Shown: piece after piece, positions 33,720 to 43,055 of the stretch | Position numbering within the stretch: the stretch's first letter is position 1 | Layout of the letters: every line of letters starts with the position of its first letter | From: Prevotella sp. | GTDB lineage: Bacteria; Bacteroidota; Bacteroidia; Bacteroidales; Bacteroidaceae | Reading direction: 5' to 3' | NCBI GenBank assembly: GCA_017940545.1 | Contig: JAGAYI010000065.1 | Coordinates: 1-64,000, forward strand | Length of the DNA: 64,000 nt | Made by a program: the position numbers and the translations under genes | The notes under the pieces: model-generated | The model's database searches: none | Told to the model about the DNA's origin: nothing | What the model saw: the letters and a program-made list of their open reading frames with translations, nothing else

Positions 33720-33750
33720 GTAAACGCAAATAAATCCTAATTTATTTTGT
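33720..33750. repeat. Left copy of a 31-bp direct repeat flanking the GH3 gene
   Basis: Begins GTAAACGCAAATAAATCC and is identical to 36004-36034. Similarity continues ~15 bp to the left (a CCAAAA-TATTTT stretch). The copy contains the stop codon of the GH3 gene. Confidence 0.8.
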
Positions 33751-36003: not shown

Positions 36004-36034
36004 GTAAACGCAAATAAATCCTAATTTATTTTGT
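36004..36034. repeat. Right copy of the 31-bp direct repeat
   Basis: Identical to 33720-33750. It lies between the GH3 promoter and the tRNA-Ser gene; its last bases form the -33 TTTG of the tRNA promoter. Confidence 0.8.
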
Positions 36035-36077: not shown

Positions 36078-36165
36078 GGAGAGGTGCTCGAGTGGTTGAA
36101 GAGGCACGCCTGGAAAGCGTGTAAACGTCAAAAGCGTTTCGGGGGTTCGAATCCCCCTCTCTCCG
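36078..36165 (+). tRNA. tRNA-Ser (anticodon GGA)
   Basis: An 88-nt class II tRNA. Acceptor GGAGAGG pairs with TCTCTCC (one G.U). Anticodon stem CACGC/GCGTG holds loop CTGGAAA with anticodon GGA at 36112-36114 (reads UCC/UCU). It has a long variable arm and T arm GGGGG-TTCGAAT-CCCCC; discriminator G; CCA not encoded. The phage integrase starts ~100 nt beyond its 3' end, so this gene is the likely attachment site. Confidence 0.95.
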
Positions 36166-36181
36166 CAAAATGGCAGGTAGG

Positions 36182-36268: not shown

Positions 36269-37519
36269 ATGACCTCTACAAGATATTATCTCGACCGTCG
36301 GCACAAGGAGGCAAGCAGGCCACAGCCTCTGAAGCTCTGCATAACAAAGAAGGGGGCATCTGCATATATCCCCGTTGACATCGTTCTGTTGCCTTCCCAG
36401 TGGGACAGCATAAGGCAGCGTGTCATCGACCACCCCAACCGCAGGGGGATAAATGCGTATCTTGAAAGCAGGAAGGCCACAATCGACGGCCTCATTATGC
36501 AGATGACAATAGAAGGGAAGCTCGCAGGCAAGACAGCCGTTCAGATTAAGGACATAGTGCTGGAGCGTCTTGACCCGGAGGCTGACACGGCCAATCTCTT
36601 TGCCGTCCGCTTCAAGGCATACGGCGAGAGCCGGGAGGCCAAGCGTACCCGTGAGCTGTACGCGGCGACGCTGAAGAAGATGCAGGAGTTTGACGGGAAG
36701 CTCGGCACTATGTCCTTCGACATGATAACCAAGGCTTGGCTTGACCGTTTCAACGAGCACCTTATACGGCAGGGGCTGTCAAAGAACTCCCGCAACATTC
36801 ACTTCCGCAACATACGCACCGTGTTCAACGATGCAATAGACAACGAGATCACTGCACACTACCCGCTCCGCAAGTTCGACATGTCCCCGGAGCAGACCGT
36901 CAAAAGGAGCCTGAGCGTGGAGAGGCTACGGGAACTATTGACGTACCCGGTTGAGCCTTGGCAGCAGAGGTACGTTGACTATTTCAAGCTTACCTTCCTG
37001 CTTATCGGAATAAATCCCGTTGACCTGCTGACGTGCGAGCCTGATGCGTATCGGGAAGGTAGGCTTGTCTATCAGCGGGCAAAGACGGGAAGGTGGTATA
37101 ACCTGAAGGTGGAGCCAGAGGCCGCAGAGATGCTGGAGCAGTACCGGGGTGAGCAGCTGCTTGTCGGCTTTTCGGAAGGTCGCACATCCTACCGCAACTT
37201 CACGGGCAAGTGCGACAAGGGGCTGAAAGCAATCGGAAAGACTGGGCAGGTAGCAAATCCGGCATGGAAGCCCGGTTCCCAGAAACACCGCTACCACGTC
37301 CGTCGCGTCCCGGCCTTTCCCGGCCTGTCCGTCTATTGGGCGCGGCATACATGGGCTACCATTGCCTATTCGCTCGACATTCCTGATGAAACGATAGCTG
37401 CTGCCCTCGGTCACGGCCACGGCAACCGCACGACGGCCATCTACATTGATAAGTCCATTGCCCGTGTTGACGAGGCCAATAGGCGCGTAATAGACTGGGT
37501 ACTCTACGGCAAAAGGTAG
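36269..37519 (+). CDS. int: Phage tyrosine recombinase (integrase)
   Basis: The 416-residue product has an N-terminal arm, a SAM-like core-binding domain (~110-220, 'MITKAWLDRFNEHLIRQGLSKNSRN') and a catalytic domain from ~220. Visible catalytic residues are RHTW (box II, ~356) with LGHG following and the nucleophile tyrosine in TAIYIDKS (~391). At the usual box I arginine site the sequence reads GINPVDLL, as I recall for one Bacteroidetes integrase group, so Arg I may be displaced. It inserts the phage into the tRNA-Ser gene by attP/attB recombination. The gene points away from the tRNA and opposes the late operon. Confidence 0.92.
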   Translation: MTSTRYYLDRRHKEASRPQPLKLCITKKGASAYIPVDIVLLPSQWDSIRQRVIDHPNRRGINAYLESRKATIDGLIMQMTIEGKLAGKTAVQIKDIVLERLDPEADTANLFAVRFKAYGESREAKRTRELYAATLKKMQEFDGKLGTMSFDMITKAWLDRFNEHLIRQGLSKNSRNIHFRNIRTVFNDAIDNEITAHYPLRKFDMSPEQTVKRSLSVERLRELLTYPVEPWQQRYVDYFKLTFLLIGINPVDLLTCEPDAYREGRLVYQRAKTGRWYNLKVEPEAAEMLEQYRGEQLLVGFSEGRTSYRNFTGKCDKGLKAIGKTGQVANPAWKPGSQKHRYHVRRVPAFPGLSVYWARHTWATIAYSLDIPDETIAAALGHGHGNRTTAIYIDKSIARVDEANRRVIDWVLYGKR

Positions 37520-39922: not shown

Positions 39923-40219
39923 CTACTTGTTAGAGAGTATCTTTCTGATATTTGCGGCTGTGTAGCCCTCTTCGGTCAGACACTCCGTCCATTCCGCATC
40001 CGTCGGCTCGTGGTCGCAGAGTGCGCTCACGTAGTCGTAGGCCGTCACTTCCACCTCGGTCTCCTGCCCCTCTTCGTCGGTCGATGGCTGGGTTTCCTGG
40101 TGCTCGTTGAAGTAGATGCGATACTCGTCTGCCTCCTGTACTGAGGGGAGTGGCAGTTTCTCCCGCTTGCTGGTCAGTGCGCTTGCTGGCACAACGCTCG
40201 ACTCTGTTAAAAACTTCAT
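39923..40219 (-). CDS. Small acidic phage protein overlapping the reverse-transcriptase frame
   Basis: The 98-residue product is acidic and ends in a helical TEEGYTAANIRKILSNK, which looks like a genuine domain end. Its whole length overlaps the last ~96 codons of the reverse transcriptase frame, whose residues there (Arg/Gly-rich, low complexity) look like an out-of-frame shadow. I therefore take this as the real gene in this stretch. It is 5 nt before the 135-residue gene. It does not look like the four-helix Avd accessory protein. Function unknown. Confidence 0.6.
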   Translation of the reverse strand: MKFLTESSVVPASALTSKREKLPLPSVQEADEYRIYFNEHQETQPSTDEEGQETEVEVTAYDYVSALCDHEPTDAEWTECLTEEGYTAANIRKILSNK

Positions 40220-41213
40220 AATGCTTACTTTTTAAGATGTTCGTAATACGTTCGCCGTGGCAGTGCCTCAGTAGTCCGAGGTAGCTGTAAACCGATGACC
40301 TCTCGGCCAGCGGGTCTGCCAGCGGTTTCTTATCCAACTGACGCAGCTTCCGCGAGAAGTTACGGAGCGTTCCCGTGCGCATCTTGGCAATGGCGTTGGA
40401 GTCCACCGTATATCCGCAGAAGTCTATCTTGCGACCGTCCAGCGGGAACATTTCGAGCGTACCGTATATGATACCGTGCGCCGGAGCCTCCCTAATCAGT
40501 CGGTCAATGACCCTTGCACCTTCCTTCTTTGAACGGACGAGCATCACGGTGTTATCTACAAGACGAGAGTAGTATTTCACCTTCAGCACCTCCAGCACAA
40601 AGTGGTCAAGCGGCGTGTAGTACATATTGCCGCAGTCCTGCGAGGTCAGTGCGCCGATACTCATTCCCAGCTCTTCGGGCAGGTAGGCGCGGATAACCTT
40701 CTCGAACAGGCGCAGGGCTTTCTCGCCCTTGTACATCCTGCGCAGTAGGTATATCATGCGTTCCTTGACGATGTTCGGGTAGTATTTCTTAGCGTCGGTG
40801 ATAATGACATAGCGGAAACCGCTCATATACACGTCACGGCGCACCTGCTTTGACGCTGCCAAGGTACCACGTTTCTTGATGCTTCCGAATGTGCGGCGTA
40901 TATAGCGACGCTTCATGTTGAAGAACTTCACGAGCACCTGGTGTACTATCCTGTCCTCGATGGGAACGACCGTGATGTCCCGCCATTTCTTTTCAGTGAA
41001 CAGCTTGAACGTCCGGCCTGGGTCGGCCTGCCAAGTCCCGTTGCGCAACCGCTGTTGCAGACTGAGCAGGTTCTTTTTCAGTATGTCCGGGGTTTCGCCG
41101 AACTCGATGGCATCTTCCCGGTCGCCCTTGCTCCCCGATGTGGCTCTGATATAGCCGTTATACAATTCGTTGTACGAGGTAAGGGCTTCAAAATCTATAT
41201 ACTCCCTTTTCAT
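39930..41213 (-). CDS. DGR reverse transcriptase with altered YxDD box
   Basis: The 427-codon frame carries reverse-transcriptase motifs: EDRIVHQVLVKFF (~86), IKKRGTLAA (~112), motif A ITDAKKYYP with Asp140, IGALTSQ (186-192; the DGR form IGxxxSQ) with NMYYTPLDHFV after it, and thumb GLLRHCHG (~313). Motif C, normally YxDD, reads LVDN (218-221): one of the two Asp is Asn. The enzyme copies the template repeat with errors at adenines and directs the copy to the variable repeat. The domain is complete by residue ~339; the rest overlaps the gene at 39923. No avd gene is seen nearby. Confidence 0.9.
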   Translation of the reverse strand: MKREYIDFEALTSYNELYNGYIRATSGSKGDREDAIEFGETPDILKKNLLSLQQRLRNGTWQADPGRTFKLFTEKKWRDITVVPIEDRIVHQVLVKFFNMKRRYIRRTFGSIKKRGTLAASKQVRRDVYMSGFRYVIITDAKKYYPNIVKERMIYLLRRMYKGEKALRLFEKVIRAYLPEELGMSIGALTSQDCGNMYYTPLDHFVLEVLKVKYYSRLVDNTVMLVRSKKEGARVIDRLIREAPAHGIIYGTLEMFPLDGRKIDFCGYTVDSNAIAKMRTGTLRNFSRKLRQLDKKPLADPLAERSSVYSYLGLLRHCHGERITNILKSKHYEVFNRVERCASKRTDQQAGETATPLSTGGRRVSHLLQRAPGNPAIDRRRGAGDRGGSDGLRLRERTLRPRADGCGMDGVSDRRGLHSRKYQKDTL

Positions 41214-41459: not shown

Positions 41460-41571
41460 AGTGTGAGCACCCCCGTAATTCGTGTTCGTGTTCGAAGCCA
41501 CGTTGTTCGAGTTCAAATGCGAGACACCGCAGTTGGAGCCGTTGTTCGCACTACCCACGACGGCAGGGATG
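41460..41571 (-). repeat. DGR template repeat (TR)
   Basis: This 112-bp stretch aligns without gaps to 41784-41895 with 15 mismatches, all at adenines of the minus strand of this copy (about 26 adenines in total). Read in the target's frame it is rich in AAC codons (GSANNGSNCGV..NSNNVAS..), the hallmark of a template that gives wide amino-acid choice when A is mutated. It lies ~250 nt upstream of the reverse transcriptase, outside any gene, as in classical DGRs. Confidence 0.95.
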
Positions 41572-41703
41572 CAGGACTGAAAGCCCACGTATCGGTCTCG
41601 GCCAGCCCGTGGCGTACCCGGTACGGTTTTTATCAATCGCAACCGCCGTCCCGACAAGGTGAGGTTTCGCCCTGCCGGGCGACGATTTCGATTTTTCAGG
41701 CTT

Positions 41704-41721
41704 GCGGTCTTTTCAGACCGC
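41704..41721 (-). other. DGR target-site hairpin (cruciform) after the variable repeat
   Basis: Minus strand GCGGTCT-GAAA-AGACCGC: a perfect 7-bp stem with a GAAA tetraloop, 62 bp beyond the variable repeat and just after the target's stop codon. Published work on the Bordetella phage DGR showed that such hairpins with GRNA-type tetraloops downstream of the variable repeat raise mutagenic homing. Confidence 0.85.
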
Positions 41722-41735
41722 CGATTTCAATTTCG

Positions 41736-43055
41736 TCACAACGCAATCGTGCCATCGGCCACCGTGTCGGTCGGGTCATCGGCAGCGAGAGCACCCCCGT
41801 AAACCGCGCCCGAGTACGAAGCCACGCGGTTCGAGTTCAAAGGCGAGACACCGCAGTCGGAGCCGTTGCTCGCACCACCCACGACGGCAGGGATGTACAC
41901 GGTGTCCTCTGCGAAGGCGTGATAGTAATAGTCGGCATGGCCTTTGGATGCGTCACCGCCAACCATCGTAGGTATCAGGGTGTCCTCGAAGTCCTCCAAT
42001 ATCCAGCCATCATTCAGGCATTCGTCGCAAAGGTACTCCCACTTGGTTTCGTCGGTGGGGTCGAAGCCCGTGACGGTGTTGATATTCTTGGCGCGATACC
42101 ACTTGTGGTTTTTCTTGACGTAGCCTGTAGCCCATATCCAATAGGGGCCAGCGAGCAGGTGGTCAATCCACAGGAACTTGTAGGCATGTACTGTAGCCTG
42201 AGTACCTTCGCTGTTGGTAAGCGTGAGTTCGCGCTGCCCCTCGTGGCCTGCAATGTCGTTGAGGTCGCCCGTCTTGTGGAACTGGCCGCGAGACGATGCG
42301 CCACCTTCAGATGAGCGGTCGAGCTTCTGCCACCACGCGTCGGAACATGTTATGCCGGGGAATACGCTCTGAGAATTGAACGTACCCTTCAGGAGCCAGA
42401 ACATATCACGGTAAACCTCCTGGTCTTGGACGGCATGCTCTCGGAAGTTCTCACCGAGGTTCTTGGCATACTGGTGGAGATTGGCCAGCGAAACATTCTG
42501 GGTAGTCCATTTGCCGCTGTTGGAGATAAGCATGTTCTTGCTATCGTGGGTCTCCACGGTTCCTCCGTGCTGTGCGAGGAAGCGACGGCGCACATATCTG
42601 TAGCCGCGCACCTTGCGGGGTGACAGGTCGATGTACTTTTCGTTGGTAGAGGCATTGTAGCTGTAGTGTTTCCACCAGCCGCCCATACGCACCATACATT
42701 GCAGCGTCCAGTCGTCGAGAGTGGCCGTCAGCCCGTCAACGGTCTTGCGCACGTCGTTGCCGTTGAGGTGAGCAGCCACGATTGCATTGCGGTCAACGAG
42801 TACCGGGAAGCACATTGCCAGCAGCTCCTGTATCAGGGATATGTTGCCGCTGAGGGTCACAACGGTGCTGGCCTGCCCTACGAGGCGCGTGATGCGCACA
42901 CGGTTGAGCGGCACGTCTGGATAGACACCGTTGGCATTGGGCATTGCAGCAAGTACGTCCGAGAAGGAAGCCTTGTAGAACACCCCGGACTTATCAAGCA
43001 GCACGTTTTCCGTGCCGTTGAAAGTCGTTAGTTTGGGAACATCTGATAAATTCAT
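41736..43055 (-). CDS. DGR target: phage receptor-binding/fibre protein with variable C-terminus
   Basis: The 439-residue protein has an N-terminal fibre-like part (VLLDKSGVFYKASFSDVL), a middle domain rich in Trp/Tyr and a C-terminal region with features of the C-type-lectin/FGE-like fold used by DGR targets (WIDHLLAGPYWIWATGYV; GGDASKGHADYYYHA; IPAVVGGASNGSDCGV). Codons for residues ~387-423 are the variable repeat; twelve residues there differ from the template. It ends 16 residues later. It sits after two fibre genes in the tail module, so it probably tips the fibre and binds the host surface; diversity would switch receptors. Confidence 0.9.
   Translation of the reverse strand: MNLSDVPKLTTFNGTENVLLDKSGVFYKASFSDVLAAMPNANGVYPDVPLNRVRITRLVGQASTVVTLSGNISLIQELLAMCFPVLVDRNAIVAAHLNGNDVRKTVDGLTATLDDWTLQCMVRMGGWWKHYSYNASTNEKYIDLSPRKVRGYRYVRRRFLAQHGGTVETHDSKNMLISNSGKWTTQNVSLANLHQYAKNLGENFREHAVQDQEVYRDMFWLLKGTFNSQSVFPGITCSDAWWQKLDRSSEGGASSRGQFHKTGDLNDIAGHEGQRELTLTNSEGTQATVHAYKFLWIDHLLAGPYWIWATGYVKKNHKWYRAKNINTVTGFDPTDETKWEYLCDECLNDGWILEDFEDTLIPTMVGGDASKGHADYYYHAFAEDTVYIPAVVGGASNGSDCGVSPLNSNRVASYSGAVYGGALAADDPTDTVADGTIAL
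41784..41895 (-). repeat. DGR variable repeat (VR)
   Basis: The 112-bp C-terminal piece of the target gene matching the template. Changes relative to the template: Ser to Gly, Asn to Ser, Asn to Asp, His to Pro, Asn to Arg, Asn to Tyr, Thr to Ser, Asn to Gly, Thr to Ala, Asn to Val, His to Leu, Thr to Ala. Every change is at A of the template and no C, G or T of it is altered. Confidence 0.95.

What the first reader, a model, noticed from the sequence alone, without database searches (positions are those of the whole stretch)
41460..41895. Adenine-specific template/variable repeat pair: a diversity-generating retroelement in the prophage
Two 112-bp repeats (41460-41571 and 41784-41895) align without gaps and differ at 15 positions; by hand count all 15 are adenines in the template on the minus strand, of about 26 adenines. 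No C, G or T of the template is changed. The variable copy is the C-terminus of a tail-fibre-like gene, the template is intergenic and a reverse transcriptase follows. This is the full signature of a DGR (established from Bordetella phage BPP-1 and others). Twelve residues of the target differ from the template-coded version. The 100% A bias shows that mutagenic homing has happened in this lineage.
Basis: partly seen in the sequence, partly recalled or inferred. Interest (0 to 1): 0.95.

Follow-up and report, generated by a model that had tools for sequence, protein, structure and literature searches.

The report
Two-target DGR with altered RT motif
A bacterial prophage carries a template repeat whose two partner copies, one in a tail gene and one in a distant early-region gene, differ from it only at adenines within the matched stretch, and its reverse transcriptase, whose catalytic motif reads LVDN instead of the usual YxDD, is predicted to be the enzyme that still writes these mutations.

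Summary
It is a diversity-generating retroelement (DGR) in a ~58-kb prophage at a tRNA-Ser gene.

(1) The RT reads LVDN where DGR RTs have YxDD; a survey of 155 DGR RTs calls both aspartates 100% conserved (PMC3521204). The 9 nearest homologues (55-96% identity) share (L/M)(V/I)DN, the other 111 listed have DD, and the DN rows form one clade (100/99): a retained variant, not a fresh knock-out.

(2) A second variable repeat lies 41 kb away in an early-region gene of the prophage; 12 of 12 mismatches fall on adenines. Two-target DGRs are known (Quimbyvirus, PMC8008677).

(3) Two of the 15 differences look like a fixed homing boundary, leaving 13 mutagenic.

A close relative of the tail protein differs at 12 of 17 adenine codons, 0 of 20 other repeat codons and 9 of 402 residues elsewhere, so this lineage diversified recently. 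That the LVDN enzyme does it is inferred, not assayed.

The parts
41460..41571 (-). Template repeat (TR), intergenic, 112 nt, 26 adenines
   Evidence: the tool found it at three places in the host assembly, itself included
41784..41895 (-). Variable repeat 1 (VR1), codes residues 388-424 of target 1; 15 of 15 mismatches to TR at A, 13 of them probably mutagenic
41784..41802 (-). Inferred homing boundary at the 3' end of VR1 (counterpart of TR positions 94-112), with two fixed differences from the TR
   Evidence: shared with VR2; residues L, A in 6 of 6 relatives; the role is inferred
41736..43055 (-). Target 1, 439-aa tail protein
   Evidence: phrog_5302; model closest to TaqVP 5vf4
41704..41721 (-). 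7-bp hairpin with GAAA loop, 62 bp after VR1
   Evidence: only GRNA-loop hairpin with a stem of 7 or more on C30:1-112000; folds at z -3.65
39930..41213 (-). DGR-type reverse transcriptase ORF (427 aa; conserved part about residues 1-333, 40215-41213) with LVDN at residues 218-221
36104..36124 (+). Left copy of the 21-bp att core inside tRNA-Ser (36078-36166); the right copy is at contig C30:94232-94252, outside the window
36269..37519 (+). Tyrosine integrase of the prophage

Best explanation
This is a prophage diversity-generating retroelement with one template repeat and two variable repeats that differ from it only at adenines within the matched stretch, and its reverse transcriptase, which carries LVDN in place of the YxDD catalytic motif, likely still copies the template RNA with errors at adenines and likely pastes the copies into both target genes. 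Shown: the repeats, the adenine restriction, the shared reading frame, the LVDN motif, its conservation in a ten-row clade, and a relative whose tail protein varies at adenine codons of the repeat and at none of its other codons. Inferred: that the LVDN enzyme is the polymerase, with the motif A Asp (D140) and the single motif C Asp (D220) holding the metals as in GDN or ADN RNA polymerases; that homing starts at the 3' end shared by the variable repeats; that the tail protein binds host receptors and that the early-region protein acts inside the cell.
For: VR1: 15 of 15 mismatches at A (P 4.9e-12). VR2: 12 of 12 at A over TR positions 3-112 (P 1.5e-9), same codon phase, 16 differences from VR1. 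RT: IGALTSQ present; nearest fold and sequence the BPP-1 DGR RT. DN in 10 of 10 clade rows with open frames; of 67 columns conserved among 32 DD rows, 51 kept by all ten. P0121: 12/17 A codons, 0/20 other VR codons, 9/402 outside (Fisher 3e-14); all 37 of its VR residues reachable from this TR by A changes alone. No second RT seen in the own assembly. GRNA hairpin after VR1. Precedents by analogy: Ebola L GDNQ (PMC5648267, passages), birnavirus ADN polymerase, active and able to reverse transcribe (PMC3121795, passages).
Against: No activity assay. Motif C is essential in bRT (YMDD>SMAA is the dead control, PMC12875486, passages), though that change removes both Asp. No DNA of another DN member could be fetched, so P0121-P0126 are not shown to be linked to DN RTs. 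The assembly is 70.5% complete, and the PF00078 search did not even ring for this RT, so a helper RT is not excluded. The hairpin is 62 bp from VR1 (4-34 bp in PMC3240598), and the VR2 hairpin has an AT-rich stem and a TTCG loop. The fit of target 1 to TaqVP is loose (TM about 0.4, rmsd 10-11). P0009 sits on a long branch.
Confidence: 0.78

Rival explanations
1. The LVDN RT is conserved but not the polymerase; an ordinary YxDD RT of the host or of another phage copies the template in trans, while the LVDN protein only binds or presents the RNA.
For: The second catalytic Asp is missing; the assembly is 70.5% complete, so a helper could be missed.
Against: No second RT by protein search or PF00078 (this control did not ring for the LVDN RT itself). 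DGR RTs are specific for their own template RNA (recalled). Motif A Asp, SQ motif and most family-wide conserved columns are kept.
Confidence: 0.1
2. The LVDN RT has lost polymerase activity; the variable repeats are relics of an earlier active enzyme and the DGR is now silent.
For: Loss of a catalytic Asp is a usual way to lose activity; the change would be invisible in VR until other bases drift.
Against: The same substitution is kept in ten rows down to 55% identity. No non-A mismatch within the matched stretch of either repeat. P0121 and the window's target differ at 12 of 17 A codons while only 9 of 402 residues differ elsewhere, so diversification is recent.
Confidence: 0.1
3. Ordinary duplicated sequence that drifted apart, with the adenine pattern a coincidence.
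For: Gapless repeats of about 87% identity occur in duplicated phage genes.
Against: 15/15 and 12/12 mismatches at template A (P 4.9e-12 and 1.5e-9), a non-coding template, and the same pattern in relatives: 13/13 in each of L031-L033, of which L031 and L032 are near-copies, and 17/17 in G037.
Confidence: 0.01

Closest known systems
BPP-1 DGR of Bordetella phage (bRT, Mtd, Avd)
   Same: Order target-VR, TR, RT on one strand; adenine-only differences; closest solved RT (8ub7); GRNA hairpin after VR (PMC3240598, passages)
   Different: LVDN instead of YMDD; no Avd found near the cassette (test inconclusive); hairpin 62 bp from VR1; a second target 41 kb away
Quimbyvirus DGR (PMC8008677, section read)
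   Same: One DGR, two targets, one structural and one non-structural; LoVEphage, whose second-target homologue lies near methyltransferase and tRNA ligase genes, shows such a neighbourhood
   Different: Quimbyvirus RT is split over three frames; here it is one ORF with LVDN; here the second target sits among replication genes. That LoVEphage is Quimbyvirus-like is my inference
Nearest YVDD DGRs (L031-L033, IMG/VR)
   Same: RT 49% identical, same layout, 13 of 13 mismatches at A in each
   Different: Canonical YVDD
Polymerases with GDN or ADN motif C (Ebola L, PMC5648267; birnavirus VP1, PMC3121795; passages only)
   Same: Asn in place of the second motif C Asp with an active polymerase; VP1 also has RT activity and works best with Mg2+ plus Mn2+
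   Different: Unrelated RNA polymerases; analogy only, not membership

Membership tests
DGR (element) | TR/VR pair with mismatches at template adenines | tested here: met
   15 of 15 and 12 of 12 over TR 3-112
DGR (element) | VR inside a target gene, TR outside any target, RT nearby | tested here: met
DGR (element) | RT of the DGR clade with (I/V/L)GxxxSQ | tested here: met
   IGALTSQ in the window; nearest fold and sequence bRT. Motif definition from PMC3521204 and PMC4244168 (passages)
DGR (element) | Target with C-type lectin variable domain | tested here: inconclusive
   only PDB matches below E 0.001 are TaqVP, but TM about 0.4 and rmsd 10-11
DGR (element) | Hairpin downstream of VR (7-10 bp GC-rich stem, GRNA loop, 4-34 bp away) | tested here: inconclusive
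   VR1: stem and loop fit, distance 62 bp. VR2: 8 bp at 19 bp but AT-rich with TTCG loop
DGR (element) | Accessory protein (Avd) | tested here: inconclusive
   PF22296 gave nothing in the own genome nor in any control; PF05635 rings only on other contigs
DGR (element) | cDNA synthesis and homing by this RT | not testable with these tools
   needs a bench assay
Canonical YxDD reverse transcriptases, as in all 155 DGR RTs of DiGReF | YxDD with both aspartates | tested here: not met
   LVDN in the window; DN in 10 of 10 clade rows, DD in 111 of 120 listed homologues. It is therefore filed as a DGR variant by its element features, not as a canonical DGR RT

The most novel reading that the evidence does not exclude
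A lineage of phage DGR reverse transcriptases has dropped the second catalytic aspartate for good and works with a single-aspartate LVDN centre, its neighbours in motifs A and C refitted (I138, T139, T222), perhaps with Mn2+, so that the active site itself was remodelled for adenine-selective error while one template diversifies both a tail adhesin and an early intracellular protein.
Probability: 0.55. Interest if true: 0.82.

Novelty: new variant of a known kind. Interest (0 to 1): 0.68.

Why it matters
The paired aspartates of motif C were reported as invariant in DGR RTs (PMC3521204), and replacing the motif is the standard dead-enzyme control (PMC12875486). A conserved clade without the second one, in a lineage whose variable repeats still change only at adenines, is a natural test of which active-site features make the enzyme err at adenine. 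Surveys that demand YxDD or a Pfam RVT_1 match would miss such elements: this RT falls below the Pfam cut-off. The second target adds to the few DGRs known to diversify a non-structural phage protein.

Tried and rejected
Drifted gene duplication: rejected by the base restriction. Sequencing error in the RT motif: rejected, since nine other protein clusters share it. A known RNA family at the TR/VR stretch: nothing in Rfam.

More loci with the DN RT were sought and not found. Viral contigs: one search gave three YVDD loci; searches gave none. Genome contigs: searches gave none. Whole genomes: beside the own genome, 22 of 119 relatives had only distant RTs (20-37% identity); at strict thresholds only the own genome matched among 399 (family), 398 (genus) and 393 (order) genomes (the sets overlap and each was drawn from a larger group). 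Phage collection: 99 records, all under 60% identity. A profile search added no DN cluster; the nine further listed proteins, P0241-P0249, are all YVDD. 47 of the 167 hits were not listed and not looked at. So TR/VR pairs of other DN members could not be read, and their linkage with P0121-P0126 stays open.

P0127 is a fragment that does not hold the VR; its row is an alignment artefact and it was left out. Tentaclins (PMC10743442, abstract and passages) were considered for the second target and not adopted: they have an N-terminal lectin domain followed by Ig domains. No paper on an Asn-for-Asp DGR RT turned up in searches, which cover open-licence PMC papers only.

Full report
Observation. 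On the minus strand the order is target (43055-41736), template repeat (41571-41460), RT (41213-39930). The repeats align gaplessly over 112 nt with 15 mismatches, all at the 26 template adenines: 9 to G, 4 to T, 2 to C. If 15 mismatches fell at random, the chance that all hit A is 4.9e-12.

Setting. An integrase (36269-37519) lies beside a tRNA-Ser gene. A 21-bp core of that tRNA (36104-36124) recurs exactly at contig position 94232-94252. The window is the first 64 kb of C30, a 140,332-bp contig of the host assembly, so the prophage is about 58 kb.

Target 1 is a 439-aa protein matching a tail family (phrog_5302). Its AlphaFold2 model (mean pLDDT 90) has as its only PDB matches below E 0.001 three chains of TaqVP, a DGR variable protein (E about 1e-6). 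The superposition is loose: TM about 0.4, rmsd 10-11.

The motif is conserved. Of 167 homologues the best 120 were listed. Nine (55-96% identity) have LVDN (6), LIDN (2) or MVDN (1); the other 111 have YVDD (110) or FVDD (1). In a tree of 42 chosen rows, built without the motif columns, the ten DN rows form one group with support 100/99, on a stem of 0.36 changes per column; P0009 is a long branch of 0.77. All ten rows keep 51 of the 67 columns conserved among the 32 DD rows. Twelve columns are fixed in DN and rare in DD, and five of them (138, 139, 199, 221, 222) lie in or beside motifs A, B and C. A decaying gene would hardly keep this pattern. [quoted passage not shown] PMC4244168 (passages) finds the SQ motif with Y(V/M)DD in 57 of 62 DGR-clade RTs.

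Diversification is recent in this lineage. P0121, 95% identical to target 1, differs at 12 of 17 residues whose template codon holds an A at position 1 or 2, at 0 of 20 other VR residues, and at 9 of 402 elsewhere (Fisher 3e-14). All 37 of its VR residues can be reached from this TR by changing only A. These are proteins without context, so their RTs are not seen.

Second target. A search of the host assembly with the TR gave three places: TR, VR1 and C30:83224-83328. The third lies inside the prophage, in a 215-aa ORF (C30:83093-83740, minus). The tool's match covers TR 3-107; extended to 112 it has 12 mismatches, all at the 25 adenines (P 1.5e-9), in the same codon phase as VR1. TR positions 1 and 2 do not match there and lie outside the homology. 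VR2 differs from VR1 at 16 positions, so it was diversified separately. Its gene lies among PcfK, PcfJ, helicase-methylase and DnaD-like loader genes, not among tail genes. It belongs to phrog_11581, of unknown function. Relatives occur in 8 phage records, LoVEphage among them, and in 17 IMG/VR loci. In four pairs of close relatives, 10-13 of 35-36 residues differ inside the VR columns and 0-3 of 147-168 outside. In G037, a genome of the same genus, the family member's repeat matches a template in front of a different RT, with 17 of 17 mismatches at A. So the family is a DGR target with at least two unrelated RTs. Benler et al. (PMC8008677, section read) describe a second, non-structural target in Quimbyvirus beside methyltransferase and tRNA ligase genes, and LoVEphage shows such neighbours around its member. 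The two-target layout is therefore known.

Homing boundary. At TR positions 108 and 110 both VRs carry T and G where the TR has A, and the residues there are L and A in 6 of 6 full-length relatives of target 1. Sites 80 and 86 are also equal in both VRs, but their residues vary among the relatives, so that equality may be chance. I read 108 and 110 as the counterpart of the IMH/IMH* difference of BPP-1 (term recalled), leaving 13 mutagenic changes in VR1 and 10 in VR2. Downstream of VR1, at 62 bp, lies the only GRNA-loop hairpin with a stem of 7 or more on C30:1-112000; PMC3240598 (passages) reports 4-34 bp and calls the distance flexible. VR2 is followed at 19 bp by an 8-bp hairpin with a TTCG loop, one of six with such a stem and a 4-nt loop on 112 kb, but AT-rich. 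Around the gene ends of 19 family members from other genomes, 16 had no hairpin of 6 bp or more, one had 6 bp with a 4-nt loop and two had 7 bp with a 3-nt loop.

How it likely works. The TR transcript would be copied by the RT with errors opposite A, and the cDNA would replace VR1 or VR2 from the shared 3' end. D140 and D220 would hold the metals, with N221 in place of the second motif C Asp. Precedents by analogy: Ebola L uses GDNQ (PMC5648267, passages); birnavirus VP1 has ADN, is active, also reverse transcribes, and works best with Mg2+ plus Mn2+ (PMC3121795, passages). Against this, YMDD>SMAA is the dead control for bRT (PMC12875486, passages), but that change removes both aspartates.

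Limits. No assay exists. No DNA of another DN member could be fetched. The assembly is 70.5% complete, so a helper RT is not excluded; none was seen by protein or PF00078, but PF00078 did not ring for the LVDN RT itself. The accessory-protein test could not have shown absence.

Verdict. The new part is the conserved LVDN reverse transcriptase that serves it.

Noticed in passing
39923-40219 (-): A 98-aa ORF overlaps the last ~97 codons of the RT ORF in another frame; both are open. The RT tail beyond about residue 333 looks like the off-frame product.
   Followed up: partly
41590-41735 (-): The stretch between target stop and TR folds far better than shuffles (z -5.0, 0 of 200), with a long near-perfect stem beside the GAAA hairpin; role unknown.
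   Followed up: partly
G037, loci L008 and L047: A second DGR in a same-genus genome: template before an RT that has YCDD but PIQP where the SQ motif is expected, and a phrog_11581-family target about 89 kb away on the contig; 17 of 17 mismatches at A.
   Followed up: partly
L051/L052, L054/L058, L055/L061, L043/L044: Pairs of phrog_11581-family proteins differ at 10-13 of 35-36 VR residues and 0-3 of 147-168 others, so this early-region family is widely hypervariable.
   Followed up: partly
33720-33750 and 36004-36034 (+): An exact 31-bp direct repeat, one copy just before tRNA-Ser, each holding an AAATAAAT hairpin.
   Followed up: no
G000 contig C65:2095-2337: A PF05635 four-helix-bundle protein elsewhere in the host assembly (E 8e-22); whether it could serve as a trans accessory protein is unknown.
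   Followed up: no
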